A stretch of DNA of 23,686 bases from a virus (IMGVR_UViG_3300009469_000001:1-23686); one strand, 5' to 3'; positions 6,281 to 22,805 are shown, counted from the first letter of the stretch. Program-made: numbers and translations. Notes: generated from the sequence alone by a model not told the origin.

Positions 6281-6290
6281 TGGCGTATGA

Positions 6291-7094: not shown

Positions 7095-7981
7095 AGTCTG
7101 TACTTAACTCATGTAATATAAAAATCGGCGGAGAGATAGACACACACTTTCTTTTATTCTGTCCATTTCACTATAATGTCCACACTCCAGCATGTGAGAT
7201 AGATAAGTCAAGCGGCATGTTCCTATGCTTTTCATGTGGTGAGTCAGGGAACTTTGTTGACATGGTTATGAGAGTTACTAATAGAACCTACTTTGAGGCG
7301 GCTCGCCTAATCAACTCTCATCAAAACCCCGTAGATATCGAAAAGCAAATAGATGACACAATTGAAAATTCTAGAGAGTACCCAGAGTTTGATACAAAAC
7401 TAATAAATCAACTTCATGAAAACCTAATGTCATCGAATAGGGCTAAGGAATATTTTTACGGAAGAAACATCGTTGACTCATCATTCGAATACTTTATGCT
7501 GGGATATTCTGAAAAGCAGGACATGGTTACCGTCCCCGTATTTGATGAATCAAATAAGTGTCTGGGCTTTGTTGCTAGATCAGTTGAGGGCAAGGCATTT
7601 AAAAATAGCATCGGCCTCCCAAAAAGTAAGGTTTTATTTAATCTCAATAATGTTAAGAGAAACAAACTCATTGTGGTAGAGTCCTCATTTGATGTAATTA
7701 GACTACATCAGGTTGGGTTTAGCGCGGTGGCGACCTTAGGTGCCACGGTTAGCAGAAGGCAATTGGCACTTTTACAACAGTATGCCAGCAGCATAATTAT
7801 CTGCCCAGACTCAGACGACGCTGGTCAGAAAATGACTAAAAAAATTCTTGATAATCTAAAGGATAAAAGTATAGACTTGGTTTCATTGAAGAATGCCAAA
7901 GATGTAGGAGATTTGTCAGATCAAGATTTGATAGACACATTTACTAAATACTCTGGAAATACTTTAATATTAGCGGTATAA
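7031..7981 (+). CDS. DNA primase (CHC2 zinc finger plus Toprim)
   Basis: The product has 316 residues, about half the length of bacterial DnaG, and lacks a long C-terminal helicase-binding domain. The zinc finger is C44-x2-H47...C66-x2-C69. The Toprim domain has VVES with Glu217 and PDSDDAG with Asp260 and Asp262, the metal-binding residues that make RNA primers. The linker carries a YFYGRNI pattern seen in DnaG-type enzymes. It would prime both strands for the polymerase at 8750. The stop codon (7979-7981) overlaps a TATAAT box that starts the SSB transcript. Confidence 0.92.
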   Translation: MLPSSQRKQFNTDGFYEERQIESVLNSCNIKIGGEIDTHFLLFCPFHYNVHTPACEIDKSSGMFLCFSCGESGNFVDMVMRVTNRTYFEAARLINSHQNPVDIEKQIDDTIENSREYPEFDTKLINQLHENLMSSNRAKEYFYGRNIVDSSFEYFMLGYSEKQDMVTVPVFDESNKCLGFVARSVEGKAFKNSIGLPKSKVLFNLNNVKRNKLIVVESSFDVIRLHQVGFSAVATLGATVSRRQLALLQQYASSIIICPDSDDAGQKMTKKILDNLKDKSIDLVSLKNAKDVGDLSDQDLIDTFTKYSGNTLILAV

Positions 7982-7982
7982 T
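7954..7982 (+). promoter_or_regulatory. Promoter of the SSB gene
   Basis: TATAAT at 7977-7982 is a perfect -10 box that overlaps the primase stop codon. TGGAAA at 7954-7959 is a weak -35, 17 nt upstream. The start of transcription would be near 7989, giving a leader of about 43 nt with AGGAG before ATG 8032. The GGTATAATGTA sequence is repeated at 22735-22745. Confidence 0.55.
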
Positions 7983-8014
7983 GTATTTATCGGCCCACCT
8001 ATAGGGTCAAATAC
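7983..8014 (+). repeat. Inverted repeat in the SSB leader
   Basis: GTATTT (7983-7988) pairs with AAATAC (8009-8014), and GGCCC (7992-7996) pairs with GGGTC (8004-8008) with one G-U. The arms frame a 7-nt loop and a 3-nt bulge. It begins right after the primase stop. It may end or protect the primase mRNA, or regulate SSB; SSB mRNA leaders are a common autoregulation site in phages. Confidence 0.5.
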
Positions 8015-8031
8015 TTATTAGGAGAAATATA

Positions 8032-8685
8032 ATGTCAGTTATTACAGGTTTGAAAAATATTAAAAGTAAGATGGAGCGCCCTCAGGTAGAGGAAGGCTCA
8101 CGCGCTCGCTGGCTGAAGTTAGAGGACGGTCAGAGCGTAAAGATTCGTTTTGTAAATGAACTAGATCCCGACTCCCCACATTATGACAAGGGGCGTGGGC
8201 TCGCTATCGTAGTAGCAGAGCATACAAATCCAAAAGACTATCGCCGCAAGGGGCTTTGCAGCCTAGATGATGAGGGCCGCTGCTTTGGCTGTGAAATGCA
8301 TCGTAAGGACCCAAAGGCTGGCTGGAAGGCCCGTCTACGTTTCTACACCAACGTCCTTGTTGATGATGGCACAGAGCAGTATGTAGCAGTATGGTCACAA
8401 GGCGTTGGTCAGAAGTCTCCAGCCACCAATATTCTTATTGAGTACGCGGGTGACACTCAATCAATTAGCAATCTCCAATGGCGTTTGAAGCGTTCAGGTA
8501 CTGGAACTCAGACAAGTTACACGCTTATCCCGCTAGCACCCGATACGGAAAAGTTTGATTGGTCAGGAATAGAGCCCTTTGAACTAGAAAAGGTTGCTGT
8601 CCGTCAGGTAGCATACCCAGACCAGGAATCATTCTACATGGGCATGGACGTTGATACATCATCAAGTACATCAGTAGACTGGTAA
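8032..8685 (+). CDS. gp32-like single-stranded DNA-binding protein
   Basis: This encodes 217 residues. An OB-type core region with a zinc site is visible: H64-x11-C76-x7-C84-x2-C87, near the His-Cys-Cys-Cys pattern of T4 gp32. The ssDNA contact region would be around residues 27-120, rich in Arg, Lys and aromatic residues. The tail is acidic and ends DVDTSSSTSVDW, as SSB tails do when they contact partner proteins. AGGAG precedes the start. Codon use is more GC-rich than in its neighbours, which may reflect strong expression. It is not a bacterial-type SSB. Confidence 0.82.
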   Translation: MSVITGLKNIKSKMERPQVEEGSRARWLKLEDGQSVKIRFVNELDPDSPHYDKGRGLAIVVAEHTNPKDYRRKGLCSLDDEGRCFGCEMHRKDPKAGWKARLRFYTNVLVDDGTEQYVAVWSQGVGQKSPATNILIEYAGDTQSISNLQWRLKRSGTGTQTSYTLIPLAPDTEKFDWSGIEPFELEKVAVRQVAYPDQESFYMGMDVDTSSSTSVDW

Positions 8686-8689
8686 AGTC

Positions 8690-8719
8690 TTGATTGTTGG
8701 GTGGGCACTAGGATATACT
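8690..8719 (+). promoter_or_regulatory. Promoter of the polymerase gene
   Basis: TTGATT (8690-8695) and TATACT (8714-8719) are separated by 18 nt. The predicted start near 8726 leaves a short leader to ATG 8750, which has GGAGAG upstream. The -10 box forms the loop of the inverted repeat described at 8705. Confidence 0.55.
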
Positions 8720-8728
8720 TCCTAGTGC
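8705..8728 (+). repeat. Perfect 9-bp inverted repeat around the -10 box
   Basis: GCACTAGGA (8705-8713) and TCCTAGTGC (8720-8728) are exact reverse complements with a 6-nt loop that is the TATACT box. It lies 20 nt after the SSB stop codon. It could be a terminator-like hairpin for SSB mRNA or an operator for the polymerase promoter. No run of T follows, so it is not a classical terminator. Confidence 0.65.
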
Positions 8729-8749
8729 TTACTCATTTATTGGAGAGAA

Positions 8750-11700
8750 ATGTTTCATAATCATCATTCACATTCTTATTACAGCCTTCTAGACGGATAC
8801 TCCTCACCAGAAGAACTTATGAAGAGAGCATCTGAAATTGGAATGCAGGCGCTTTCTATTACGGACCATGGCACATTGAGCGGCCATAGAGACCTAGTGA
8901 GGGCGGCTAGTGAAAATAACGTTAAGCCAATTCTTGGACTAGAGGCATACTTTACTACAGACAGAACAGATAAAAGATCTAAGAAGGATAGAACCCCTGA
9001 TGATCAAATTTATAACCATCTTATCATTTTGGCTAAGAATGATATTGGCCTAGAAAATCTTAATAGACTGTCTGAGGATGCATGGAATGAGGGATTCTTT
9101 GTTAAGCCTAGAACAGATTTTGAGATGCTAGAGCAAAACAAGGAGGGCCTAGTAGTTCTGTCTGGATGTATGAATGGAATTATCGCAAAAGCATTGGAGA
9201 ATAATAATGAATCGCTTGCTAGACAATATACTGGATGGTTTAGAGATGTTTTTGGAGAAGATTTCTACATGGAGATTCAACCACACAATCCTGCTTCTCT
9301 CAATCATGCCCTTATGGATCTTGCTGATAGTCAAGGGGTGCGGTCAGTAGTAACTCTAGACTGCCATTATGCTTCACCAGAAGATCGCATAGCAGAAGAA
9401 ATCATGCTTATCTTGGGAACGCATCCCAAAATAGATAAGAATATTGAGTTTGGTAAAAGCCGTAAGATCAAAGACCTAATGGAAAGGCTTGACTATCTCT
9501 ATGGAGATAGGCAAATGTCCTTTAAGAATCTAGATATATGGCTGATGAACTATAATGATGTTAAGAAAAGAATGATTAGTCAAGGAATTGACAGAGAAGA
9601 TATTTATGAGAATTCTGTAGAGATTTCTGAAAAGATTTCTAATTATGATATTAAGTCAGGAGTAGATCTTCTTCCTGTAAATCGCAAAGACCCTCATGAA
9701 GAACTAAGGCAACTCGTGATGGATGGCCTTAGAAAGAGAGATCTAGTAGAGCCCGAGTATCTTGATAGAGTAAAGGAAGAACTGAGTATCATTAAAGAGA
9801 AAAACTTTTCTTCATACTTTCTTGTAGTATCAAATATGATTTCTTGGGCAAAGAGTCAGAATATTCTAGTTGGACCAGGCAGAGGATCTGCCGCTGGAAG
9901 CCTAGTTTGTTATGCACTAGAGATTACAGATGTAGACCCTATCAAGCATGGACTGCTCTTTTTTAGATTCATTAATCCAGAAAGAAATGACTTCCCCGAT
10001 ATTGACACAGACTACGAGGATCGTAGAAGAGGCGAAGTAAAGGAATATCTTATTAATGAATATCGTCATGTAGCATCTATTGCAACCTTTAATACTTTTA
10101 GGGATAAGGGTGTTGTTAGGGACGTTGCAAGGGCCTTTAACATCCCCCTGTCGGAAGTAAATAAAGCACTTAAGGGGATTGAGACCTGGGAGGAATTTAT
10201 AAGAACTCCTGGGGCTAAGGAGTTTAGAGATAAGTATCCAGAGGTTGTAGAGTATGCTGATCGGTTGCGCGGAAGGATTCGTGGAACTGGACTTCATGCT
10301 GCCGGAATTGTAACTTCTAAGACAGAGATATCTAAGTATGCTCCAATAGAAACAAGAAAAGATACTCAAAGTGATTCAAGAATCCCTGTTGTAGCAGTAG
10401 ACATGGATCAGGCTGCAGAGATAGGTTTGATTAAGATCGACGCACTTGGCCTGAAGACTTTGACAGTTATTCAGGATACTATCAAGAATGTTCGTGATCG
10501 ACATGGAGTGGATATTAAACTGTCTGAAATTCCATTCGATGACAAGGAAATTTATGCAGACCTATCTGCTGGATTCACCAAGGGAGTTTTCCAGGCTGAG
10601 GCTGTTCCGTATACCAATCTTCTTATAAAGATGGGGGTAAGCAGTTTAGATGAACTTGCTGCATCTAATGCCCTCGTTCGTCCTGGTGCCATGAATACAA
10701 TTGGAGCGGACTATATTAAAAGAAAGAAGGGGCGACAGTCAGTAAAATATGTACACCCAATTATGAAAGAATTTACAGAAGATACATATGGGTGTATCCT
10801 TTACCAGGAACAAGTTATGCAGGCCTGCGTTCAACTTGGCGGAATGACAATGGCAGAGGCAGATAAAGTTAGAAAGATTATTGGAAAGAAGAAGGATGCA
10901 AAAGAATTCGACCAGTTCAAGGATAAATTTATTTCTGGCGCTTCACGGCACATTTCAAAGGAAGCCGCAGAGAATCTATGGCATCAGTTTGAGGCTCACG
11001 CAGGCTATTCGTTTAATAAGAGTCATGCTGTTGCATATTCTACGCTTTCTTACTGGACGGCATGGTTAAAGAAATATTATCCACTAGAGTTTATGTTCTC
11101 CCTAATGAAGAATGAGGGCGATAGGGATAAGAGAACAGACTATCTTATCGAAGCCAAAAGAATAAATATTAAAATACGGCTACCCCACATTAATGAATCT
11201 GGAGAAGATTTTACTCTAGAGGGTGGGGCAATTAGATTTGGCCTTGGGAACATTAAGTTCATTTCTGAGGGAATTGCAAAGAAGATAATCGCAGCAAGGC
11301 CATTCAATACCTACAAAGACTTCATTGAGTTTACCTCTAAGAAGGGTTCTGGGGTAAATAGTAGAGCCGTGGACGCCTTGAATAAAATAGGTGGAGCAGC
11401 GTTCCCAGACAATCCTCGTAGTGGAAATGAAAGGGAATACTTGTATGAGTATCTAAACATTCCTGAGTTTGTTACTAATATTCCTAGATGGGTAGAGTCA
11501 TACTTTAAGCCAATAGAAGATTATGAAGAAGAGGGCGCTTTCATTATCATGGGGATGGTTAAATCAATTAAGCGCGGAGATGGATGGAGCCGAATTGAGA
11601 TTGTTGATAAGACTGGGAGTGTTGGTGTATTTCATAACCAAGACACCCAGGTTGAGCCAGGGAGGATGTATATCTTCTTAGTTTCAGATAATAGAGTTGC

Positions 11701-12007
11701 CTCATTTATCCAGCCGGACTCCCTTGACTCAGCACAGACACCTTTTGTACAATTTCTAAAGGCGAAGACTATGGTCTTAGGTCCAGAAGAATATTATGTT
11801 GTGGACGTAGAGCCTAGGAGGACAAAGAAGGGTGATAGAATGGCACACGCAGTTTTGTCTAATGAAGACAAAGAACTAACTTCAGTCATCATCTTTCCAT
11901 CAGTTTACGCAGAATCTTTAGCACATATGAAGCCTGGTACAAGTTGCAAGCCAGTATTTGGTGAGACTAACACAGGCGCTACTACATTAAAGGGATTTAT
12001 CAGATGA
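8750..12007 (+). CDS. dnaE: DNA polymerase III alpha subunit
   Basis: The product has 1085 residues, near the bacterial length (about 1160 in E. coli). The PHP domain at the N-terminus has HNHHSHS (3-9) and TDHGTLSGH (38-46), so its metal site looks intact. The polymerase core carries GPGRGSAAGS (375-384), the catalytic aspartates in PDIDTD (416-421), and the third in IKIDALGL (Asp564). The HhH region and an OB-fold (around FIIMGMVKSI) follow. It would replicate the phage genome independently of the host replicase. An intact PHP site may allow proofreading or pyrophosphate removal; no separate exonuclease subunit is in the window. Confidence 0.96.
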   Translation: MFHNHHSHSYYSLLDGYSSPEELMKRASEIGMQALSITDHGTLSGHRDLVRAASENNVKPILGLEAYFTTDRTDKRSKKDRTPDDQIYNHLIILAKNDIGLENLNRLSEDAWNEGFFVKPRTDFEMLEQNKEGLVVLSGCMNGIIAKALENNNESLARQYTGWFRDVFGEDFYMEIQPHNPASLNHALMDLADSQGVRSVVTLDCHYASPEDRIAEEIMLILGTHPKIDKNIEFGKSRKIKDLMERLDYLYGDRQMSFKNLDIWLMNYNDVKKRMISQGIDREDIYENSVEISEKISNYDIKSGVDLLPVNRKDPHEELRQLVMDGLRKRDLVEPEYLDRVKEELSIIKEKNFSSYFLVVSNMISWAKSQNILVGPGRGSAAGSLVCYALEITDVDPIKHGLLFFRFINPERNDFPDIDTDYEDRRRGEVKEYLINEYRHVASIATFNTFRDKGVVRDVARAFNIPLSEVNKALKGIETWEEFIRTPGAKEFRDKYPEVVEYADRLRGRIRGTGLHAAGIVTSKTEISKYAPIETRKDTQSDSRIPVVAVDMDQAAEIGLIKIDALGLKTLTVIQDTIKNVRDRHGVDIKLSEIPFDDKEIYADLSAGFTKGVFQAEAVPYTNLLIKMGVSSLDELAASNALVRPGAMNTIGADYIKRKKGRQSVKYVHPIMKEFTEDTYGCILYQEQVMQACVQLGGMTMAEADKVRKIIGKKKDAKEFDQFKDKFISGASRHISKEAAENLWHQFEAHAGYSFNKSHAVAYSTLSYWTAWLKKYYPLEFMFSLMKNEGDRDKRTDYLIEAKRINIKIRLPHINESGEDFTLEGGAIRFGLGNIKFISEGIAKKIIAARPFNTYKDFIEFTSKKGSGVNSRAVDALNKIGGAAFPDNPRSGNEREYLYEYLNIPEFVTNIPRWVESYFKPIEDYEEEGAFIIMGMVKSIKRGDGWSRIEIVDKTGSVGVFHNQDTQVEPGRMYIFLVSDNRVASFIQPDSLDSAQTPFVQFLKAKTMVLGPEEYYVVDVEPRRTKKGDRMAHAVLSNEDKELTSVIIFPSVYAESLAHMKPGTSCKPVFGETNTGATTLKGFIR

Positions 12008-12342
12008 ATTTAGATACTCTAGCAGATAGATTGCACAATACTGCACAGGAAAAAGGATTTTGGGAACCAGTATCAAGAATGCAGGAGCAAGACTTCTTTA
12101 TATTTTATTCAAAGCAAATAGCCATGATCCATTCTGAGGCCACAGAAATTTTAGAGGCATTGAGAAAAGACAAGGGCGATGAGGCAGTTGTAGAAGAGAT
12201 TGCAGACCTTATTATTAGAGCCCTTGATTTGTATAAAGGAATTAAAGTCTACTCTGGAGATTTGCCTTCTTTGGATTCTACACTTATGAAGAAGTCTTTA
12301 ACAAATCAGGAAAGGCCACGGCTCCACGGCGTTCGTGGATGA
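12004..12342 (+). CDS. MazG-like nucleotide pyrophosphohydrolase
   Basis: This encodes 112 residues and overlaps dnaE by ATGA. The helix HSEATEILEALR with ExxE (about residues 38-49) and EEIADLIIRALD with ExxxD (about 64-75) match the metal-binding helices of MazG-type all-alpha NTP pyrophosphatases. Such enzymes cleave NTPs or (p)ppGpp-related nucleotides, and in phages may adjust dNTP pools or damp host stress signalling. The gene sits between polymerase and RecA, which suits nucleotide metabolism. The substrate is not shown by sequence. Confidence 0.82.
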   Translation: MNLDTLADRLHNTAQEKGFWEPVSRMQEQDFFIFYSKQIAMIHSEATEILEALRKDKGDEAVVEEIADLIIRALDLYKGIKVYSGDLPSLDSTLMKKSLTNQERPRLHGVRG

Positions 12343-12346
12343 TATA

Positions 12347-12577
12347 ATGAATGCTTACTTTCTTCACGGCTCAGAGGGTGAAAAGTTAATGGTAATCCGT
12401 GGGCACGATGAAGAGTTAATGAAGAAAATAATTGATAACTTACATAGATCAAGAGATGAAGATATCAAAAGACTAGCGGAAGTATTGGAGAATCATTTTA
12501 ATGAGCGACATGATGATGGAGGAAGTCCTATCGAAATTAGATCCAAAAATAAGAAAGATGGTAGGAAGCGCAGATAA
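12347..12577 (+). CDS. Charged hypothetical protein before RecA
   Basis: The protein has 76 residues from ATG 12347; GTG 12335, which overlaps the MazG stop, would add four. It is helical and highly charged, with HDEELMKKIIDNLHRSRDED and a basic tail KNKKDGRKRR. The final 77 nt are shared with recA in a different frame. I recognise no family. The TATAAT at 12343-12348 has TGA before it and might start a transcript, but no start codon sits at the right distance. Confidence 0.55.
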   Translation: MNAYFLHGSEGEKLMVIRGHDEELMKKIIDNLHRSRDEDIKRLAEVLENHFNERHDDGGSPIEIRSKNKKDGRKRR

Positions 12578-13508
12578 TGTAGAAATACATAAACAAAAGA
12601 CTCCTAGCCTATCTTTAAATGTTGCTCTTAAGGGAGGTTTGGCTTATGGTAGACAAGTTCTTATATGGGGCAATAAGAGTGCTGGAAAATCCTCATTCTG
12701 CCTGCAACTTATTGCAGATGCACAAAAACAGGGGAAGACATGCGCGTGGATCGATGCCGAACAGTCATATTCTCCTGAGTGGGCTGAAAAACTTGGAGTC
12801 GATTCCAAAAAACTTATTTACTCATCAGCAAAAACAATTAACGACATGGTTGACATTGGCACGCAACTTATCCAATCGGGAGTGGACCTACTTGTTGTAG
12901 ATTCCATCTCTGCTCTACTTCCAGCCATATACTTTGAAAAAGACGGCTCAGAACTGAAACAACTGCAGGATACAAAACAAATCGGCGCAGAGGCAAAGGA
13001 TATGACTCATGCTGTCAAGATGCTCAACTATGTTAATGACAAGACATTGCTTATCCTTATCTCTCAGCAGAGAAACCAGTTTGGATCTATGCACGCTAGC
13101 CATATTCCAACTGGAGGAATGGCAGTAAAGTTTTTTTCTAGCACCATTATTAAACTATGGTCAAGTGAGGCAGAGGCCTCATCAATTAAAGATAAGATTG
13201 CTGTGGGTGATAAACTTATTGAACAAAAGGTCGGTCGTCCGGTTAACTGGACGATTGACTACAATAAGACTGGACCTCAATTCATTACTGGATCGTATGA
13301 TTTCTACTTCCAAGGTCTGCATGTAGGAGTTGATCAGGTTGCTGATCTAGTTGATACTGCAGAAATGCTTGGAATTATTGAGCGCGGCGGTGCCTGGTAT
13401 ACTGTATTAGGAGAAAGAATTCAAGGTCGTGCAAACGTTATTGCCAGAGCCAGAGAAGACCTTGATATGCAAGAAGAACTTACAAGATTGGTATATGAAA
13501 AAATATGA
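12501..13508 (+). CDS. RecA-like recombinase
   Basis: The product has 335 residues. The Walker A is GNKSAGKS (57-64), the catalytic Glu is in IDAEQSY (84-90), and the Walker B is LLVVDSIS (130-137). SQQRNQ corresponds to the loop-adjacent region that senses nucleotide, and THxPTGG-like SHIPTGGMAVKF lies in the expected DNA-binding loop region. It would form filaments on ssDNA and promote strand exchange, working with the SSB and the resolvases downstream. It is shorter at the C-terminus than bacterial RecA. GGAG lies about 10 nt upstream of the ATG. Confidence 0.93.
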   Translation: MSDMMMEEVLSKLDPKIRKMVGSADNVEIHKQKTPSLSLNVALKGGLAYGRQVLIWGNKSAGKSSFCLQLIADAQKQGKTCAWIDAEQSYSPEWAEKLGVDSKKLIYSSAKTINDMVDIGTQLIQSGVDLLVVDSISALLPAIYFEKDGSELKQLQDTKQIGAEAKDMTHAVKMLNYVNDKTLLILISQQRNQFGSMHASHIPTGGMAVKFFSSTIIKLWSSEAEASSIKDKIAVGDKLIEQKVGRPVNWTIDYNKTGPQFITGSYDFYFQGLHVGVDQVADLVDTAEMLGIIERGGAWYTVLGERIQGRANVIARAREDLDMQEELTRLVYEKI

Positions 13509-14317: not shown

Positions 14318-14318
14318 C

Positions 14319-16074: not shown

Positions 16075-16406
16075 AAGAAACTAACCTGTCTGATATGTAC
16101 GCAGAGGCAAAAAGTATTGAAGAGAGATCATTCTTTCCAAAAAATAATACAGAGATAGCAATTGTAGATGAGTGCCAGAGAATGGCGATGATGTTAGTAG
16201 AAAAGAATCGTGCCTACGGAAACTCTGCCCTTGATCCAGTAAGAATCATGTCATCATCAGACGCAACAGAGCAATTAAAAGTTAGAATAGACGATAAATT
16301 ATCTAGATTTATGAGAGGTAAGAATTATCACGGAGACAATGATCTTGACGATCTGATAGGTTATCTGGTATTATTGAGTATTGTACAAAAGGAGACATGG
16401 AAGTAA
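16071..16406 (+). CDS. DUF1599/Nmad1-like nucleotide-metabolism protein
   Basis: The product has 111 residues. The central stretch AMMLVEKNRAYGNSALDPVR, then RIDDKLSRFMRG and DLDDLIGYLVLL, follows the pattern of the DUF1599 (nucleotide modification associated domain 1) family: KNxxYGN, RxDDKLSR and D..DLIGY. That family is linked by genomic context to phage nucleotide metabolism and DNA-base modification. The exact reaction is unknown. The gene overlaps the HTH gene by ATGA. Confidence 0.68.
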   Translation: MKETNLSDMYAEAKSIEERSFFPKNNTEIAIVDECQRMAMMLVEKNRAYGNSALDPVRIMSSSDATEQLKVRIDDKLSRFMRGKNYHGDNDLDDLIGYLVLLSIVQKETWK

Positions 16407-16582
16407 TGCCGTTATATACCTTTACATGCATGGATTGCGATAAGACGCATGAAATGATATTAAAGATTGAGGAAAGGAATAATGCTATTTGTCCAGACTG
16501 CGGAATGCGGCTGGTCAGGAACCTTGATTCCCCAGGTATGGTATGGGCACCCACCCGTGGCGGTAGTGGTTTCGCCACTTAA
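16406..16582 (+). CDS. FmdB-like zinc-ribbon protein
   Basis: I start this at ATG 16406 (58 residues) because FmdB proteins begin MPxYxYxC, because it overlaps the upstream stop by TAATG, and because GGAG lies about 11 nt upstream. CMDC (8-11) and CPDC form one zinc ribbon. A Pro/Gly-rich tail, APTRGGSG, follows. FmdB-like proteins are small putative regulators with no known enzymatic role. Confidence 0.78.
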   Translation: MPLYTFTCMDCDKTHEMILKIEERNNAICPDCGMRLVRNLDSPGMVWAPTRGGSGFAT

Positions 16583-16594
16583 TAAAGGAGAACT

Positions 16595-16897
16595 ATGTCT
16601 AGACGACAATCAAGAGACTCTGAGGAACTTCCGACTTACAAAGTAAATCCAGATATATCCGTTTTCTACGAACTTAAATTTGGCAAGGATATAATAAAAC
16701 CAGGAGACTCCTTGAAGTTTAAGGATGTAAGAGGATCTTTTAGATTTATCCGCCTTGCTCATAATGTTAAGAAGGATGTTACTTGGATAGACTGCTACTC
16801 TCCAACTACTGGAGAATATAGATCTTTCTATGTAGAAAAACTTAAGGGCGTCGTCCATGCTAAGAAAAGTATTAGAAAGAAGATGAATGTCAACTGA
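16595..16897 (+). CDS. Conserved-looking hypothetical protein
   Basis: This encodes 100 residues behind AAAGGAG. It is beta-rich and basic: a first strand pair (SVFYELKFGKDIIKPGDSLK), then FRFIRLAHN, WIDCYSPTTGEYRSFYV and a basic tail (AKKSIRKK). The layout suggests a small SH3- or Tudor-like barrel that could bind DNA or a protein. I recognise no named family. It overlaps the small terminase gene by 11 nt. Confidence 0.7.
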   Translation: MSRRQSRDSEELPTYKVNPDISVFYELKFGKDIIKPGDSLKFKDVRGSFRFIRLAHNVKKDVTWIDCYSPTTGEYRSFYVEKLKGVVHAKKSIRKKMNVN

Positions 16898-17405
16898 TGT
16901 AGTCCTGGCTGAACGCTGGGAAAAAATTAATAAGGTTGTCGATGTGTTCCTTAAGGGAACCACGAACCCCTCTGCAATTGCTAAGGCTACTGGGTTTAAA
17001 AGAGCAGAAGTCCAGGAGTTCCTTGATGAGTGGCGCTCTGTCATTCAAAGCGATAGACAGATTCAAATGCGTGCAAGAGAGGCTTTGTCTGGGGCCGACC
17101 GACATTACTCAATGCTGATTGAGGAGGGCTGGGATGTTATTAATCAGGCTGGTACAGTTGGAGATTTGGGTAAGAAAACTGCTGGGATTAAGATTGTAGC
17201 GGACATTCAACAGAAGCAAATAGATATGCTACAAAAGGCTGGGCTAATTGAGGATAGTGAAATCGCTCAACAAATAATTGAAACGGAGCGTAAGCAGGAA
17301 GTCCTAGTTAAAATCTTAAAAGAAGTTGTGGCAGATTGCGACCATTGTAAGAGAGAAGTATTTAGGCGTCTAGAAGAAGTTACAGGTAAGGCGGAGGGCT
17401 TCTGA
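16887..17405 (+). CDS. Putative terminase small subunit
   Basis: The product has 172 residues. NPSAIAKATGFKRAEVQEFL (about 27-46) is a helix-turn-helix typical of small terminases, which bind the packaging site. A long helical middle (DLGKKTAGIKIVADIQQKQI) would form the oligomerisation core, and a late CDHC pair may bind zinc. It lies directly upstream of the large subunit with a 1-nt overlap, the normal order. The call depends on this context as much as on the motif. Confidence 0.78.
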   Translation: MSTDVVLAERWEKINKVVDVFLKGTTNPSAIAKATGFKRAEVQEFLDEWRSVIQSDRQIQMRAREALSGADRHYSMLIEEGWDVINQAGTVGDLGKKTAGIKIVADIQQKQIDMLQKAGLIEDSEIAQQIIETERKQEVLVKILKEVVADCDHCKREVFRRLEEVTGKAEGF

Positions 17406-19180
17406 TGTTTGATGATTTCATATCTGCCCTGGAAGAAGACGAGTTTGAAGAACACCCAGTAAATATTGAAGAGTTTGTTACAAATGAAGACTACCTACAT
17501 CTTCCACCTCTTTCAGAATATCAATATCAGGCTATCAAGGCTATGACACAAATCTATAAAAAAGACACACTCATAAAACTTTATGGTGAAGAAGAAGGCA
17601 CAAAGAGATTCAAGCAAACCTGTAATGAGGTTATACTGCAACTGGGAAAGGGTAGCGGTAAGGATTATCTATCTACAATTTCAGTAACGTATCTTGTTTA
17701 CCTATTGCTGTGCTTGAAAGACCCTGCAAAATATTTTGGAAAACCCCCAGGAGATTCAATTGACATTATCAATATTGCTATTAACTCCGAACAGGCAAAG
17801 AACGTATTCTTTAAAGGTTTTCGCAAAAGAATTGAAGATTCTCCATGGTTTGTCGGTAAATATGCTATTACAGCGCAAAGCGTATCGTTCGATAAATCCA
17901 TTACATGCCACTCTGGTCACTCAGAACGGGAATCATGGGAAGGGTATAACGTTATCTGTGTAATTCTGGATGAGATCTCTGGCTTTAGCACAGTATCGAC
18001 AAGCGGTAACGAGCAGGCCAAGACAGGTCAGGCGATCTATGATATGTATAGGGCCTCAGTAGATTCACGCTTCCCAGACGTTGGGAAGGTTGTCCTTCTT
18101 TCATTCCCTAGATACCGTGACGACTTTATTCAGCAGAGGTACAACGCTGTCATTGCTGATAAAGATGTAGAGATAAAGTCTCACAAATTTAAATTAGATG
18201 ATGAACTGGAAAATGTTGCAGAAAATGAGTTCACAGTTGAGTGGGAAGAAGATCATATTAACGCCTACAAATATCCAAAAGTATTTGCCCTTCGTAGGCC
18301 AACGTGGGAGGTCAATCCAACGAGATCAATAAATGATTTTAAGATTGCATTCTACAACAATCCGGTAGATGCCCTTGGTAGATTTGCCTGTATGCCTCCA
18401 GATGCAGTAGATGCTTTCTTCAAATCTAAGGAAAAAATTCTCACATGCTTTAATCAGCCTATGAACGGTGTGGACGATGACGGCAGGTTTAGAGATTGGT
18501 TTAGACCCCAGGAAAGCAAAGAGTATTATATCCACGTTGACTTGGCACAAAAGCACGACCATTGTGCTGTAGCAATGGCTCATGTTGATAGATGGGTTCA
18601 TCTAAAAAGTTTTATGAATCATAGTGTGGTCAGCCCTATCGTTGTCGTGGATTGTGTGAGATGGTGGACCCCGACCTCCGACAAATCTGTTGATTTCTCA
18701 GAAGTTAAACAGTTTATTGTGGACCTAAGATCACGGGGATTTAACATTAAAAAGGTTACATTCGATAGGTGGAATTCACACGATATCATGTCAGAACTTA
18801 GAATGATTGGCATAGAAACAGAGACTCTTTCTGTAGCAAAGAAGCATTATGATGACATGGCTATGCTGGTCGGAGAAGAAAGAATTGTTGGACCCAGCAT
18901 TAAACTTCTTACAGATGAGTTACTTCAACTTAGAATTATCCGTGACAAAGTGGACCATCCAAGAAAAGGTAGTAAAGATCTCTCAGACGCGGTTTGTGGT
19001 GCCATTTATAATTCTATTGCCTATACCAGAAGAGAAGATGAAGAAATAGAAATTGAAGTACACACATTTAAACAATTAATTAGAGATCGTGAAAAAGAAG
19101 AGGCAGATAGAAATATTATTAAACCGCCAATTCCACCAGAAAGTTTTGATGATTATGTTAATTCTATAGGGATGGTATAA
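17405..19180 (+). CDS. Terminase large subunit
   Basis: The product has 591 residues. The ATPase motor has Walker A GKGSGKD (81-87) and Walker B VICVILDE (183-190). The nuclease domain has acidic residues in YIHVDLA (Asp379), VTFDRWN (Asp454) and KDLSDAV (Asp528), the two-metal centre that cuts concatemers. The Walker A ends GKD rather than the common GKS/GKT. It packages phage DNA into proheads with the small subunit. It follows the replication block, while tail genes lie at the window start, so the map is best read as circular. Confidence 0.94.
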   Translation: MFDDFISALEEDEFEEHPVNIEEFVTNEDYLHLPPLSEYQYQAIKAMTQIYKKDTLIKLYGEEEGTKRFKQTCNEVILQLGKGSGKDYLSTISVTYLVYLLLCLKDPAKYFGKPPGDSIDIINIAINSEQAKNVFFKGFRKRIEDSPWFVGKYAITAQSVSFDKSITCHSGHSERESWEGYNVICVILDEISGFSTVSTSGNEQAKTGQAIYDMYRASVDSRFPDVGKVVLLSFPRYRDDFIQQRYNAVIADKDVEIKSHKFKLDDELENVAENEFTVEWEEDHINAYKYPKVFALRRPTWEVNPTRSINDFKIAFYNNPVDALGRFACMPPDAVDAFFKSKEKILTCFNQPMNGVDDDGRFRDWFRPQESKEYYIHVDLAQKHDHCAVAMAHVDRWVHLKSFMNHSVVSPIVVVDCVRWWTPTSDKSVDFSEVKQFIVDLRSRGFNIKKVTFDRWNSHDIMSELRMIGIETETLSVAKKHYDDMAMLVGEERIVGPSIKLLTDELLQLRIIRDKVDHPRKGSKDLSDAVCGAIYNSIAYTRREDEEIEIEVHTFKQLIRDREKEEADRNIIKPPIPPESFDDYVNSIGMV

Positions 19181-19182
19181 CT

Positions 19183-19548
19183 ATGGATATGAACGAAGAA
19201 CTTATCAAGATGATGCTAGAAAGAGGATATATAGAGCAAGTTGGATATAATCCTGTAGGAGATCCACTATACAAAATAACGGAATTATTTTACACAGAGC
19301 AGGCCGATCTAGTAGAATGGATGCGTCAGCAAGACTCTGATACCCTAAGCAGTCTATGGTTTAAAGGATATATAGATTTAAAAATGTCTGAGGAAGGCCT
19401 GGGGTTTGTCTATCTTACAGATAGGTCAGATAGTTGGGTAGAAGCAGAAGATCTTACTGAGGATGAAAAGTCAATGATGTATCTTATTTACAGCACAGGT
19501 TCTTACTTTGGAGGTAACCCAGATTATGGATACGAGGAACGTAATTGA
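19183..19548 (+). CDS. Acidic hypothetical protein after terminase
   Basis: This encodes 121 residues starting 3 nt after the terminase stop. It is acidic, with a leading helix (NEELIKMMLERGYIEQVGYN), a winged-helix-like run around LFYTEQADLVEWM, and a Gly/Tyr-rich end. Neither a zinc site nor a catalytic motif is visible. It may be a small DNA- or protein-binding factor. The next gene overlaps by 23 nt, which implies coupling. Confidence 0.7.
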   Translation: MDMNEELIKMMLERGYIEQVGYNPVGDPLYKITELFYTEQADLVEWMRQQDSDTLSSLWFKGYIDLKMSEEGLGFVYLTDRSDSWVEAEDLTEDEKSMMYLIYSTGSYFGGNPDYGYEERN

Positions 19549-20053
19549 TTATTACAAGGAATGGGAGAACGATCAAATCAGGGCGGATCTAGATACTAAA
19601 CGTCTTCCATTCATTGTAGGCTTTGAAAATATTACTGGTGATTTTAATAAGGCTTCTGGAATTAGAAATAGTAATGCATTCCTGGCTAAAGAATCCTGGA
19701 TTATTGGGAATAAAAGGTGGGATCGCCGTGGAGCGGTGGGGACACAGAACTACATCCACTTGAAGTATGCCCCCTCACTAGATCATATATATCTTAATGA
19801 GCCACACATTAGAGACATGCGATGGGTGGCGGTAGACAACGTTCCTGGAGCCATTCCTATTACTCAGTATGAGTGGAAGCCAAACACCTTTATGATCTTT
19901 GGAGAAGAGGCTAGGGGTGTAAGCCCGATGGGGCTGGGCATGGCAGATGACGTTGTTATGATTCCTCAACTTGGTAGTGTTAGAAGTCTAAATGTTAGTG
20001 TTGCGAGCGGCATCGTAATGTATGACTATGCGACAAAACTTGGAATGCTATAA
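19526..20053 (+). CDS. SpoU/TrmH-family RNA methyltransferase (SPOUT fold)
   Basis: I choose ATG 19526, about 11 nt after GGAGG, giving 175 residues. The three SPOUT motifs are present: motif 1 in NKASGIRNSNAF with Arg47, motif 2 FGEEARGVS (125-133), and motif 3 IPQLGSVRSLNVSVASGI (146-163). These form the knot that binds S-adenosylmethionine, and this family methylates 2'-O-ribose in tRNA or rRNA. A long insertion around residues 62-120 is unlike minimal TrmL. A tRNA gene is encoded about 600 nt downstream. The target is not known; rRNA, tRNA or a phage RNA are all possible. Confidence 0.9.
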   Translation: MDTRNVIDYYKEWENDQIRADLDTKRLPFIVGFENITGDFNKASGIRNSNAFLAKESWIIGNKRWDRRGAVGTQNYIHLKYAPSLDHIYLNEPHIRDMRWVAVDNVPGAIPITQYEWKPNTFMIFGEEARGVSPMGLGMADDVVMIPQLGSVRSLNVSVASGIVMYDYATKLGML

Positions 20054-20059
20054 TTAATC
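20049..20059 (+). promoter_or_regulatory. Extended -10 promoter for the zinc-finger gene
   Basis: TATAAT at 20049-20054 is preceded by TGC (extended -10) and followed 5 nt later by ATG 20060. The box overlaps the methyltransferase stop. Like 6291 and 6780, it predicts a leaderless mRNA, here by one nt closer. No ribosome site is present. Confidence 0.5.
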
Positions 20060-20194
20060 ATGAAAGTATGCTCATTTTGCGGTGAAAAGGCTGAGTGGTC
20101 TGGTTCTAGGAAAGACACAATGCTTTATGTATGCAAGCCCCACTTTGAGGCATATTACATAAATTTTTCAGATTGGAAGAGACTAGATGGCTGA
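20060..20194 (+). CDS. Very small zinc-finger protein
   Basis: This 44-residue gene starts at ATG 20060 and ends at TGA 20192-20194. CSFC (4-7) and CKPH (25-28) give a Cys3His zinc site. The rest is Trp/Tyr-rich. It overlaps the next gene by 8 nt and lies downstream of the methyltransferase. Function unknown. Confidence 0.68.
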   Translation: MKVCSFCGEKAEWSGSRKDTMLYVCKPHFEAYYINFSDWKRLDG

Positions 20195-20561
20195 ATCATA
20201 TGTACCAACAGACTCAATGGCTTCTAATGCCCGTCGCGGACTTGCATTGCGAGATGAATTTAATCGCGGAGGAACGGCAGTAGGAATCGCACGCGGTAGA
20301 GATATTGCCAATAAAAAGAATCTTAGCGAGTCTACCGTATTGAGAATGCACTCCTTTTTTAGCCGCCACGCCGTTGATAAAAAGGGCAAGGGCTGGAAGC
20401 AAGGTGAAGAAGGCTATCCATCAAATGGTTTAATTGCGTGGTTGCTTTGGGGCGGTGACTCTGGAAGATCTTGGGCAGAGTCTAAGAGAAATGCAATCAT
20501 GAGAAGGAGAGAGCAGTCCAGCAAAATGTGGAAAGGTACTGCTTTCGATATAACCGAATAG
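20187..20561 (+). CDS. Conserved small phage protein of unknown function
   Basis: The product has 124 residues. MASNARRGLALRDEF, GTAVGIARGRDIANKKNLS, HSFFSRHAVDKKGKGW and GLIAWLLWGGDSGRSW follow a pattern I recall from many phages and large viruses as an uncharacterised protein or domain, sometimes joined to prohead proteases. It is soluble and basic. The gene may belong to the morphogenesis block after the terminase. No catalytic residues are assignable. Confidence 0.75.
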   Translation: MAESYVPTDSMASNARRGLALRDEFNRGGTAVGIARGRDIANKKNLSESTVLRMHSFFSRHAVDKKGKGWKQGEEGYPSNGLIAWLLWGGDSGRSWAESKRNAIMRRREQSSKMWKGTAFDITE

Positions 20562-20668
20562 ACCCCGATGTGCCAGCAATGCCGAGTTACGCGGTTGATT
20601 CCAGTATGAAGTTAGTCAAACGTGCAGAACTTAGGATGGTTATGTTACTCGCTGGCACATCGGTCTTT
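20561..20668 (+). ncRNA. Candidate structured RNA closed by a 13-bp stem
   Basis: CCGATGTGCCAGC (20565-20577) is an exact reverse complement of GCTGGCACATCGG (20651-20663), closing a 73-nt interior. Inside, GAGT (20584-20587) can pair with ACTC (20647-20650) and AAGTT (20609-20613) with AACTT (20628-20632). A second helix, TTGA (20594-20597) with TCAA (20616-20619), would interlock with the latter as a pseudoknot. TCTTTTC follows the closing stem. It lies between the upstream stop and the tRNA. It could be an independent RNA, a tRNA-precursor structure or a terminator with a long loop. I know no matching class. Confidence 0.5.
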
Positions 20669-20739
20669 TCCCGATTGGTGTAATGGCAGCACAAATGATT
20701 TTGGTTCATTTAGTCGTAGTTCAAATCTATGATCGGGAG
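20669..20739 (+). tRNA. tRNA-Gln (anticodon UUG)
   Basis: All arms fold: acceptor TCCCGAT (20669-20675) with ATCGGGA (20732-20738), D-stem GTG/CAC, anticodon stem AATGA/TCATT around TTTTGGT, and T-stem CGTAG/CTATG (one G-U) around TTCAAAT. The anticodon TTG at 20701-20703 reads CAA, and CAG by wobble. The discriminator is G; CCA is not encoded. U1 opens the acceptor instead of the usual G. The next gene starts one base after the discriminator's neighbour. Confidence 0.93.
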
Positions 20740-20740
20740 C

Positions 20741-20920
20741 ATGGAAATACATTCAGATGACGAATGTCAAAAATATTGGCGGGAGGTATTTGCCTCCCAG
20801 ATAGAAAGAACAATAAACTCTTATCATATACAAGAAAAAGATGAAGACGTAGATAGAATTAGATGGTTTCTTGAAGGATTAAGATATGCCTCTATGATTA
20901 TTAGATGGGACGATGAGTGA
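20741..20920 (+). CDS. Small charged hypothetical protein
   Basis: The likely start is ATG 20741, just outside the tRNA, giving 59 residues; ATG 20729 lies within the tRNA. The product is helical and charged, with EVFASQIERTINSYHIQEKD and RIRWFLEGLRYASMIIRWD. No signal or metal site is seen. I recognise no family. It may be expressed from the same transcript as the tRNA. Confidence 0.62.
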   Translation: MEIHSDDECQKYWREVFASQIERTINSYHIQEKDEDVDRIRWFLEGLRYASMIIRWDDE

Positions 20921-20946
20921 GACTGCTCACAAATCCCCTTTAAAAT

Positions 20947-20975
20947 TTGACCCCTTATCAGTACCCTGATAAGAT
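20947..20975 (+). promoter_or_regulatory. Promoter of the 52-residue gene
   Basis: TTGACC (20947-20952) and TAAGAT (20970-20975) have an ideal 17-nt spacer. A start near 20982 gives a short leader with a strong AAGGAGG ahead of ATG 21003. The -10 box overlaps the right arm of the inverted repeat at 20954. Confidence 0.6.
20954..20973 (+). repeat. Perfect 8-bp inverted repeat inside the promoter
   Basis: CTTATCAG (20954-20961) and CTGATAAG (20966-20973) are exact reverse complements around a 4-nt loop. It lies 33 nt after the preceding stop codon and fills most of the spacer. It could be an operator or a terminator-like hairpin for the upstream mRNA. Confidence 0.62.
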
Positions 20976-21002
20976 AAATATATCAACCCACAAGGAGGAA
21001 TT

Positions 21003-21161
21003 ATGAAGGCTTTAGGTCATTATTTTTCTGAGATTTTTAGAGGTGCCACAAGCAAAGCCTCTGGAATCCAGTCAGATTGGGACAGGGCTAGAAGAGATGC
21101 TTCTAGATTTGGACCATCACACGTTGCAGAGATTGACGCCATTTTTTCACGACAGGCATAA
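21003..21161 (+). CDS. Highly expressed 52-residue protein
   Basis: It has a consensus AAGGAGG ribosome site and its own promoter, so strong expression is likely. The 52 residues are helical and amphipathic (HYFSEIFRGATSKASGIQSD; DRARRDASRFGPSHV) and end EIDAIFSRQA. I recall similar small proteins with an EIDAIF ending in actinobacteriophages; no function is known. No membrane segment or signal is evident. It stops 4 nt before the next promoter's -35. Confidence 0.72.
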   Translation: MKALGHYFSEIFRGATSKASGIQSDWDRARRDASRFGPSHVAEIDAIFSRQA

Positions 21162-21164
21162 TCA

Positions 21165-21193
21165 TTGACACCCGCCCACGACTACTGTATTAT
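21165..21193 (+). promoter_or_regulatory. Strong promoter of the lipoprotein gene
   Basis: A perfect -35, TTGACA (21165-21170), is followed by 17 nt and TATTAT (21188-21193), one base from consensus. This is the best sigma-70-type promoter in the window. The start near 21200 gives a ~32-nt leader with AAAGG before ATG 21232. Confidence 0.72.
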
Positions 21194-21206
21194 TAGTGTC
21201 GTGGGC
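21174..21206 (+). repeat. Inverted repeat with the -10 box in its loop
   Basis: GCCCACGAC (21174-21182) and GTCGTGGGC (21198-21206) pair perfectly; ACT (21184-21186) and AGT (21195-21197) extend the stem past one bulged T. The loop holds the TATTAT box. It begins 12 nt after the upstream stop. The GC-rich stem would make a stable RNA hairpin in upstream read-through mRNA. Confidence 0.66.
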
Positions 21207-21231
21207 AAGTCATTTATAGAAAAGGATTAAT

Positions 21232-21630
21232 ATGAAAAATATTATTATTGCTGCTGCTATTTCTGCAGTTGCTCTAGTTGGATGCACATCTGAGGTGTCC
21301 CCGGCCCCGACAGTAACCATTACTGAGCAGGCCCCCGCTCCACTCCCAGCGCCAAGTGTTGATGATGGGGTGACAACTAACTCTCAAAAGTTTGTAGGTT
21401 TTGTAAGACAAAATGGTGGTGTCTATGGAAGTATTGCTAATGAATCAGACCTTCTTGGTTTGGGAGATACTATTTGTAAGGGTTTCGCAGGAGGTCTTTC
21501 AGAAGATGAGATTACTCAGGTACTATCCCAGGCTTTAATTAATAGCAATATGGGCAATGATGATGGCGCTAAGTTTGGCGCAGCACTCATTGTAGGCGCA
21601 AGAACCTATCTCTGTGTAGTAACTTACTAA
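21232..21630 (+). CDS. Exported lipoprotein resembling DUF732
   Basis: The product has 132 residues. A short signal peptide ends in the lipobox L-V-G-C18, so Cys18 would be lipidated and anchor the protein on the outer side of the membrane. A Pro/Thr-rich linker (residues 22-45) leads to a helical domain with KFVGFVRQNGGVY, LLGLGDTICKGFAGG and a paired Cys82 and Cys128, like the actinobacterial DUF732 pattern. Phage lipoproteins at the cell surface often block superinfection, which is a possible but unproven role here. It has its own strong promoter. Confidence 0.82.
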   Translation: MKNIIIAAAISAVALVGCTSEVSPAPTVTITEQAPAPLPAPSVDDGVTTNSQKFVGFVRQNGGVYGSIANESDLLGLGDTICKGFAGGLSEDEITQVLSQALINSNMGNDDGAKFGAALIVGARTYLCVVTY

Positions 21631-21746
21631 TGCCTTACTTTACATTTTATTGCTTGGTTAAGTCCGGTAACGAATACGTTATGAAACCTCATATAAATAT
21701 TTACAACAACATGATAGAAATTATTGATTGGGAAAAAAATGTATGA
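21630..21746 (+). CDS. Tiny hypothetical protein
   Basis: This 38-residue gene starts at a TAATG overlap with the lipoprotein and ends TGA at 21744-21746, overlapping the nuclease start by 8 nt. The sequence is hydrophobic and aromatic at the start (PYFTFYCLV) and mixed afterwards. It carries no catalytic residues. Coupling on both sides supports its being translated; no function is suggested. Confidence 0.52.
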   Translation: MPYFTFYCLVKSGNEYVMKPHINIYNNMIEIIDWEKNV

Positions 21747-22062
21747 ATATAAAGCGTATGTTGAAAGAGTCGTTGACGGAGATACTGTAGATCTAACTAT
21801 TGACTTAGGCTTTCATACATATGTAGTGAAAAGGGTTAGGCTATCTAACATTAATGCACCAGAAAGATTTACAGAAGAAGGTAAAATAGCAAAAGCATTT
21901 GTAGAAAATGCTCTGGCGGTGGGCATGGAAGTGGTAATACAAACACAACTAGATTCAAAAGATAAATATGGGAGAGTTCTTGGTGAGATATTTATTGACA
22001 AGCAATTCTCTTTGAATGAAATGCTACTAATGAACGGTCTCGCAACCCCCTATAATGGTTGA
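21739..22062 (+). CDS. Thermonuclease-like (SNase) protein
   Basis: I use ATG 21739 (107 residues). VVDGDTVDL (11-19), RVRL with Arg34, NINAPER (37-43) with Glu42, and KYGR with Arg79 match the Ca2+-dependent staphylococcal nuclease fold; Asn39 replaces a metal-binding Asp seen in S. aureus. The catalytic Arg, Glu and Arg are kept, so activity is plausible. No signal peptide is present, so it should act in the cytoplasm, on DNA or RNA. Its place between a lipoprotein and a lytic enzyme is unusual. Confidence 0.85.
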   Translation: MYEYKAYVERVVDGDTVDLTIDLGFHTYVVKRVRLSNINAPERFTEEGKIAKAFVENALAVGMEVVIQTQLDSKDKYGRVLGEIFIDKQFSLNEMLLMNGLATPYNG

Positions 22063-22087
22063 CTTATATTATTATCTACTGTAGAGT
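22059..22087 (+). promoter_or_regulatory. Promoter of the muralytic gene
   Basis: TTGACT (22059-22064) overlaps the nuclease stop codon; TAGAGT (22082-22087) is 17 nt further on. The -35 is strong and the -10 moderate. A start near 22094 precedes AAGGAGG and ATG 22118. Confidence 0.52.
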
Positions 22088-22091
22088 AGAT
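22074..22091 (+). repeat. Perfect 7-bp inverted repeat over the -10 box
   Basis: ATCTACT (22074-22080) and AGTAGAT (22085-22091) are exact reverse complements with a 4-nt loop, covering the whole -10 region. It starts 12 nt after the nuclease stop. The layout repeats that at 20954 and 21174 with different bases. Confidence 0.6.
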
Positions 22092-22117
22092 TAATGTTGC
22101 CGCCCAAGGAGGTCAAT

Positions 22118-22741
22118 ATGACGACAAAAAACCAATTTGGAATGGCAATAGATTGGATTGCCGTAGTAGTTCTAGCAATCACATTTATTGCAGCACCAAG
22201 TCTGGCGTATGCTAAGTCTGCGCCCTTGGCGGAAAGTGCAAATGGAAACTTTGCCACCGCTGATGCATTCGAAAGAAGTGCAAGCAAAAAGAAAGTTTGG
22301 GTTTTGCCATCCAAATGTGATAACAAGCAGGCAAAGATTCTGTTTGACGCAGGTTTTAATAGACCTGGGATGTTAAGAGGAGCGTGGGCTATTACCTGGC
22401 GCGAATCTAAGCATCAGTCACTTGACGAATCTAGCAGATGGTATTCAGGTGCTCTGGGTACTTGGCAAATTCAGACCAGCGCATGGTCTGGAAGATCCTG
22501 GTGGTCACGGAGTAACATGCTAGATAAAGAAATAGAATCAAAAATTGTGCGTAAATACTTTCTTAAAGATGGTATGCATAATTGGGGCTATGGATATTCT
22601 TTTAAGAATGATTCATGGTACGAGGATGCAGGGATGTACTACTCTCTATGGGGATCTAGTACAACATATGCATGGGTAATTGCTCCATTCAATACCGGAT
22701 GGTCTTTATTCCCTGGCAAATGCACCCCTAAAAAGGTATAA
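22118..22741 (+). CDS. Exported lytic-transglycosylase/lysozyme-like protein
   Basis: A consensus AAGGAGG places the start at ATG 22118, giving 207 residues. Residues 13-32 form a signal peptide ending SLAYA, so the protein should leave the cytoplasm through Sec. The mature part has WAITWRESKH (90-99) with a candidate catalytic Glu96, then GALGTWQIQTSAW (111-123), like lysozyme-like transglycosylases. Two cysteines (67 and 202) may form a disulphide. It may be a secreted endolysin that escapes the need for a holin, or a wall-remodelling enzyme. Substrate unproven. Confidence 0.78.
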   Translation: MTTKNQFGMAIDWIAVVVLAITFIAAPSLAYAKSAPLAESANGNFATADAFERSASKKKVWVLPSKCDNKQAKILFDAGFNRPGMLRGAWAITWRESKHQSLDESSRWYSGALGTWQIQTSAWSGRSWWSRSNMLDKEIESKIVRKYFLKDGMHNWGYGYSFKNDSWYEDAGMYYSLWGSSTTYAWVIAPFNTGWSLFPGKCTPKKV

Positions 22742-22742
22742 T
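22737..22742 (+). promoter_or_regulatory. -10 box before the glycosyltransferase gene
   Basis: TATAAT at 22737-22742 overlaps the upstream stop, as at 7977-7982, and shares GGTATAATGTA with it. No good -35 is seen (TGGCAA at 22714-22719). A start near 22749 would put the 22753 hairpin in the leader. Confidence 0.45.
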
Positions 22743-22752
22743 GTAGTACATA

Positions 22753-22805
22753 GGTATGGCGGGGGGAACAACACAATAAAATGTGCGGCAACACCCCCGC
22801 CTACC
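22753..22805 (+). repeat. GC-rich inverted repeat in the glycosyltransferase leader
   Basis: GGTATGGCGGGGG (22753-22765) pairs with CCCCCGCCTACC (22794-22805), 12 bp with one bulged T. The 28-nt loop is AT-rich. It is far more GC-rich than its surroundings. It starts 11 nt after the upstream stop and may end upstream mRNA or regulate the next gene; TTGGAGAA follows it, before ATG 22824. Confidence 0.62.

What the first reader, a model, noticed from the sequence alone, without database searches (positions are those of the whole stretch)
7977..22805. Inverted repeats after stop codons in nearly every intergenic gap
The rare true gaps at 7983, 8705, 20565, 20954, 21174, 22074 and 22753 each hold an inverted repeat beginning roughly 2-35 nt after the upstream stop. 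Arms of 7-13 bp differ in sequence from gap to gap, so a single repressor site is unlikely. A structural (RNA) role such as ending or protecting the upstream mRNA fits better, though none but 20651 is followed by a T-run. In an actinobacterial host, terminators without a U-tract have been argued for.
Basis: partly seen in the sequence, partly recalled or inferred. Interest (0 to 1): 0.68.

Follow-up and report, generated by a model that had tools for sequence, protein, structure and literature searches.

The report
Phage gap hairpins, several different kinds
The inverted repeats in the gaps of this freshwater-type phage are not one thing: some are RNA hairpins that carry a promoter in their loop or sit at the start of a messenger, one or two are probably coincidences over promoters, and the longest is the end-stem of a previously uncatalogued small phage RNA sitting beside tRNA genes.

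Summary
All seven inverted repeats exist, but only three (8705, 20565, 21174) clearly exceed chance on sequence alone, and the common 'terminator' reading fits one or two of them. Six of the seven gaps hold a sigma-70-like promoter. Across gap hairpins of relatives, non-Watson-Crick cells are G·U, not A·C (36:5; coding control 195:193), so the stems act as RNA, not DNA operators. 8705: covarying hairpin after ssb with the dnaE -10 in its loop (terminator-like hairpin fused to a promoter). 21174: same layout, conserved but not covarying. 7983 and 22753: leader hairpins a few bases after a -10. 20954: not conserved, a coincidence over an extended -10. 22074: leaderless promoter with a weak palindrome. 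20565: the 13-bp terminal stem of a 99-nt RNA, 5 nt before tRNA-Gln. About 40 relatives in IMG/VR share the core CTTRGGATGGTNNNGTTAC plus GTGC, have a covarying 11-14 bp end-stem, mostly abut tRNAs and occur in two circularly permuted orders. No Rfam match, no member in the cultured phages tested; function unknown, and the most novel part.

The parts
7977..7982 (+). -10 (TATAAT) of the ssb promoter, over the stop codon of the primase gene; -35-like TGGAAA at 7954
   Evidence: -10 present in the relatives aligned, with TTGACA at about 17 nt in several
7992..8008 (+). ssb leader hairpin: 5-bp stem, 7-nt loop ACCTATA (family loop about [AC][CT]NTA[TC][AC])
   Evidence: 18 relatives, 100% of cells paired, 15 cells changed on both sides; alignment
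8690..8719 (+). dnaE promoter TTGATT-18-TATACT
   Evidence: TTGA invariant and TATACT/TATAAT kept in nearly all of 17 sequences
8698..8735 (+). 16-pair hairpin after ssb whose 6-nt loop is the -10; predicted start of transcription falls in the right arm
   Evidence: 12-pair core 96.5% paired, 7 pairs with compensatory changes
20565..20663 (+). structured RNA of 99 nt: terminal stem 20565-20577 with 20651-20663 (13 bp), core CTTAGGATGGTTATGTTAC from 20630
   Evidence: no Rfam match
20669..20740 (+). tRNA-Gln (anticodon ttg), 5 nt after the structured RNA
20947..20975 (+). promoter TTGACC-17-TAAGAT with an extended -10 (TGATAAGAT); the inverted repeat 20954-20961/20966-20973 is a coincidence over it
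   Evidence: right arm invariant, left arm not; 73.6% paired, no compensatory change
21165..21206 (+). promoter TTGACA-17-TATTAT with -10 in the loop of a 12-bp hairpin (21174-21186 / 21195-21206)
   Evidence: conserved in 7 sequences, one pair varies C-G / U.G / U-A, otherwise invariant
22059..22094 (+). leaderless promoter TTGACT-17-TAGAGT, ATG 6 nt after the -10; short palindrome 22074-22080/22085-22091 over the -10
   Evidence: TTGACT and TARAGT kept in many relatives, palindrome weak
22737..22742 (+). -10 (TATAAT) of the glycosyltransferase gene promoter (CTGGCA-18-TATAAT)
22753..22805 (+). leader hairpin GGTATGGCGGGGG...CCCCCGCCTACC with conserved loop sequence GCGGCAAC
   Evidence: main stem 94% paired, 2 pairs with compensatory changes, loop GCGGCAAC invariant

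Best explanation
The repeats are four kinds of element. (1) At 8705, probably also 21174, a hairpin forms in transcripts that read through from the upstream gene (ssb at 8705) and acts as their 3' end (terminator or exonuclease block), while the -10 of the downstream promoter sits in its loop, so one 40-bp sequence ends one transcript and starts the next. New transcripts start inside the right arm and therefore lack the hairpin. (2) At 7983 and 22753 a hairpin lies a few nt after the predicted start in the leader of ssb and of the glycosyltransferase gene; conserved loops suggest translational control by a bound protein, for ssb possibly its own product. (3) At 20954, and largely at 22074, the repeat is a by-product of a promoter. 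(4) At 20565 the repeat is the closing stem of a separate small structured RNA that is made beside tRNA genes and probably trimmed out by tRNA processing. Shown by comparison: stems of types 1 (8705), 2 and 4, conserved promoter sequences, tRNA adjacency, non-conservation at 20954. Inferred: every function.
For: RNA-level pairing: G.U 36 vs A.C 5 in gap hairpins, 195 vs 193 in coding control; excluding the sites after ssb still 14 vs 3. Covariation: 8705 7 of 12 pairs, 7983, 22753, 20565 5 of 13 pairs in its own order and 9 of 12 in the permuted order with 100% of cells paired. Promoters at six gaps, kept with the hairpin at ssb-dnaE. In other clades ssb is followed by a hairpin without a -10 in its loop: ttcg or similar loops in L050, L070, L073 and a GC-rich stem in Streptomyces phage BillNye. 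Small RNA: tRNA 3-5 nt downstream in 13 of 16 type-N members, 0-2 nt upstream in 15 of 24 type-P members; six of the others have a -10 ending 5-7 nt before the stem.
Against: No transcript data. 8705 has only a weak U-rich tail (TTTATT) and 21174 shows no compensatory changes, so a DNA operator is not excluded at 21174. -10/-35 matches of this quality also occur by chance (51 found vs 45.9 expected in the whole scan). Protein binding to leader loops is untested. The inner stems of the small RNA and the GGAT/ATCC pairing that supports the permutation show little covariation.
Confidence: 0.72

Rival explanations
1. All seven repeats are U-tract-less transcription terminators or mRNA 3' protectors.
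For: They follow stop codons; the class is described for actinophage phiC31 and mycobacteria (references in PMC5335608); a hairpin after ssb is kept in distant clades without a -10 in its loop.
Against: 7983 and 22753 lie just after a -10, so they would cut the next gene's own transcript; 20954 is not conserved; 20565 is the stem of a separate tRNA-linked RNA; mycobacterial RNA polymerase was reported to need a U-tract in vitro (cited in PMC5335608).
Confidence: 0.12
2. The repeats are DNA operators for one or more repressors at the promoters.
For: They overlap or adjoin -10 elements at 8705, 20954, 21174 and 22074; 21174 is nearly invariant in both arms in 7 sequences.
Against: G.U far exceeds A.C on the + strand, which a DNA palindrome does not predict; arms at 8705 change pair by pair between relatives; arms differ from gap to gap.
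Confidence: 0.1
3. Most repeats are chance palindromes in AT-rich promoter DNA.
For: Longest arms at 7983, 20954, 22074 and 22753 are at or near chance level; 20954 is not conserved.
Against: 8705, 20565 and 21174 exceed chance; covariation at 7983, 8705, 20565 and 22753.
Confidence: 0.06

Closest known systems
[quoted passage not shown]
   Same: Intercistronic hairpins without a clear U-run in an actinophage-type genome (8705).
   Different: Here the next promoter's -10 sits in the loop; no termination data. The paper itself was not available here.
I-shaped terminators of mycobacteria (PMC5335608)
   Same: Stem after a stop codon without a U-tract.
   Different: Overlap with a conserved promoter; host of this phage not known.
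PeSL cassettes (early promoter plus stem-loop) of T4-type phages (from memory: Arbiol et al. 2010, not held here)
   Same: Promoter and stem-loop combined in one intergenic element.
   Different: The -10 is inside the loop here, different phage family; not compared by sequence.
T4 gene 32 mRNA leader autoregulation (from memory)
   Same: A structured leader of a single-stranded-DNA-binding protein mRNA.
   Different: A 5-bp/7-nt hairpin here, no pseudoknot tested, no binding data.
T4 species 1 and species 2 RNAs (rnaC, rnaD) in the T4 tRNA cluster
   Same: Small stable RNAs of about 120-140 nt within a phage tRNA cluster.
   Different: Neither carries the core CTTRGGATGGTNNNGTTAC nor the long closing stem.
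Hammerhead and twister ribozymes (circularly permuted natural RNAs; PMC10085705)
   Same: Conserved core occurring in circularly permuted orders with different closing stems.
   Different: No match to any Rfam family; no cleavage evidence.

Membership tests
Intrinsic terminator (canonical) | GC-rich hairpin immediately followed by a run of U | tested here: not met
   8705 has only TTTATT and most relatives no T-run; 21174 is not listed among the terminator-like sites. 20565 is followed by TCTTTT but that is a tRNA leader.
U-tract-less actinobacterial terminator | conserved hairpin after a stop codon | tested here: met
   8705: hairpin with 7 compensated pairs in relatives.
U-tract-less actinobacterial terminator | RNA 3' ends or termination at the hairpin | not testable with these tools
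   No transcript data.
Sigma-70-type promoter | -35 and -10 hexamers at 16-18 nt, conserved in relatives | tested here: met
   Six gaps; kept in relatives at 7983, 8705, 20954, 21174.
DNA operator palindrome | G.U and A.C departures equally frequent on a given strand | tested here: not met
   36:5 against 195:193 in coding control; 14:3 without the ssb sites. Not decisive for 21174 alone.
Rfam families (all 4227) | covariance-model match to the RNA at 20565 | tested here: not met
   Only chance-level mir-2513 at E 3.2 in the window piece; on seven permuted relatives' contigs only tRNAs, antisense tRNA-like and chance-level hits.
T4 species 1/2 RNAs | shared core sequence | tested here: not met
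   Core absent from rnaC and rnaD; model R1 finds nothing below E 1 in T4.
Self-cleaving ribozyme | in vitro self-cleavage | not testable with these tools
   Not tested; circular permutation is only suggestive.

The most novel reading that the evidence does not exclude
The repeat at 20565 marks a new class of small phage RNA: 75-145 nt, closed by an 11-14 bp stem, with an invariant core CTTRGGATGGTNNNGTTAC and GTGC, mostly encoded 0-6 nt from tRNA genes in uncultivated actinophage-like contigs, and existing in two circularly permuted orders. It could be a ribozyme, a tRNA mimic or decoy against tRNA-targeting host defences, or a regulatory RNA.
Probability: 0.6. Interest if true: 0.75.

Novelty: new variant of a known kind. 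Interest (0 to 1): 0.58.

Why it matters
Two points are testable and useful. First, a promoter whose -10 lies in the loop of a covarying RNA hairpin would let one short sequence end one phage transcript and start the next, and gives concrete sites for examining the disputed idea of terminators without a U-tract. Second, an RNA gene with a strongly covarying closing stem, an invariant core and permuted forms, mostly abutting tRNA genes, adds an uncatalogued RNA to phage tRNA clusters, where T4's two small stable RNAs have (from memory) lacked an assigned function for decades.

Tried and rejected
One explanation for all repeats: rejected after the site-by-site comparison. Conserved structure at 20954: rejected. 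Operators in general: rejected by G.U/A.C asymmetry, left open at 21174. General enrichment of -10 in hairpin loops across all gaps: 12 of 44 gaps with both a strong hairpin and a promoter, most of them the same ssb-dnaE site, so not claimed as a genome-wide rule. Cultured relatives of the small RNA: none by blastn or by model R1 in BillNye, Sham, Enygma and T4; the short-core search gave only marginal hits, the listed ones under annotated coding genes or in unannotated records, Grayson checked. Bacterial genomes: two hits to the core pattern, not examined further. Rfam: no match. A first, badly placed alignment of the 21174 site was discarded and redone. Literature: PeSL papers proper not found and the phiC31 paper not held; no paper describing the RNA found, within an open-access library only.

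Full report
What the window is. 23.7 kb of a virus record, 39% G+C, genes almost all on the + strand. Gene order dnaB-HNH-primase-ssb-dnaE-recA-cas4-ruvC-terminase-tRNA resembles Streptomyces phages of the Stanwilliamsviridae, whose DnaE is up to about 56% identical; there is no DNA-level match to any cultured phage. Related IMG/VR contigs were fetched with the SSB and glycosyltransferase proteins.

Observation. All seven repeats are there. Against dinucleotide shuffles and coding windows, 20565, 8705 and 21174 are clearly more than chance; 20954, 22753 and 22074 are borderline; 7983 is at chance level on sequence alone. Six of the seven gaps carry a -35/-10 pair. That scan finds about as many sites in the whole region as expected by chance, so the promoters rest mainly on their conservation in relatives.

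RNA or DNA. A DNA palindrome that departs from symmetry should show G.U and A.C equally often on one strand; an RNA hairpin tolerates only G.U. In non-redundant gap hairpins of this phage group, scored without preference, G.U:A.C is 36:5; in coding windows of the same contigs it is 195:193. Sites after ssb contribute 22:2 and all others 14:3. The strong gap hairpins therefore act as + strand RNA (or single strand).

8705, between ssb and dnaE. Seventeen sequences keep a 12-pair stem (96.5% of cells paired, 7 pairs with changes on both sides, 30 such cells against 9 in shuffles), a -10 (TATACT or TATAAT in nearly all) in the loop and TTGA at the -35. The start predicted from the -10 falls in the right arm, so only read-through RNA can form the hairpin. 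More distant relatives and Streptomyces phage BillNye have a hairpin after ssb without that -10. Best reading: a terminator-like or 3'-protecting hairpin of ssb mRNA with the dnaE promoter fused into it. The tail is weak in U. Terminators without poly-U are described for actinophage phiC31 and mycobacteria, while a U-tract requirement is reported in vitro (both cited in PMC5335608).

21174. Same layout, TTGACA-17-TATTAT with the -10 in the loop of a 12-bp hairpin, kept in 7 sequences; one pair runs C-G, U.G, U-A, the rest never vary. Conservation alone does not separate RNA from an operator here.

7983 and 22753. Both lie a few bases after a -10. The ssb leader hairpin has a 5-bp stem that is 100% paired in 18 sequences with 15 cells changed on both sides and a 7-nt loop in which TA is constant. 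Streptomyces phages Sham and Enygma have a hairpin of similar size in the ssb leader with a different loop (read by eye). The 22753 hairpin keeps GCGGCAAC in its loop and has two compensated pairs in its main stem. Control of translation through a bound protein is the natural reading; it is untested.

20954 and 22074. At 20954 the right arm is the extended -10 and never changes, while the left arm changes freely: 73.6% of cells paired and no compensation. At 22074 the ATG follows the -10 by 6 nt, a leaderless promoter; the palindrome is short and varies.

20565. The 13-bp arms close a 99-nt RNA (20565-20663) that ends 5 nt before tRNA-Gln. Related contigs share the core CTTRGGATGGTNNNGTTAC and an upstream or downstream GTGC. 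The closing stem is 13 bp in type N and 11-14 bp in type P. It pairs in every cell in both aligned sets, with 5 of 13 and 9 of 12 pairs showing changes on both sides. Type N lies 3-5 nt before a tRNA in 13 of 16 members; type P lies 0-2 nt after a tRNA (one overlaps it by a base) in 15 of 24, and L127, L250 and L254 have a tRNA-like 3' end there that ARAGORN did not call. The other six have a -10 ending 5-7 nt before the stem. Both arrangements put the 5' end at the start of the stem. Most of the contigs belong to the same broad phage lineage (terminase 60-71% identical in the more distant ones; a few short contigs show no shared gene). Permutation is argued from the shared core and GTGC in opposite order, from a model of type P that scores most other type-P members and L091 below E 0.01, and from GGAT/ATCC pairing on the expected side; the last does not covary and is inferred. 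No Rfam family matches, T4 rnaC/rnaD lack the core, no cultured phage match was convincing and bacterial genomes gave two unexamined hits.

Verdict. The new and most interesting piece is the tRNA-linked structured RNA; the second is the hairpin with a promoter in its loop. Functions are inferred throughout.

Noticed in passing
6780-6792: Leaderless promoter (TATAAT 6 nt before ATG) upstream of the small gene before the primase; TATAAT followed by a start codon 5-7 nt later is kept in most of about 35 relatives although the gap has no inverted repeat.
   Followed up: partly
6281-6303: HNH gene preceded by a palindrome GGCGTATGA-TATAAT-TGTCATATGCC running into its start codon; L025 has a similar sequence, other relatives do not.
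   Followed up: partly
20050-20060: GCTATAAT just before a 42-codon ORF (about 20060-20189) with CxxC motifs, another likely leaderless start.
   Followed up: no
L091:4490-4590: A close relative of the window (terminase 87%) carries the permuted form of the tRNA-linked RNA, while other close relatives carry the window's form.
   Followed up: partly
L114:26665-26728: Streptomyces phage Enygma has a 19-pair hairpin with an extended -10 (TGATATACT) in its loop, followed by T6, before the large terminase gene.
   Followed up: no
L101-L105, L107, L108, just upstream of the glycosyltransferase gene: In these relatives the leader hairpin is absent and an apparent tRNA (anticodon cat read by eye) lies directly upstream of the gene.
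   Followed up: no
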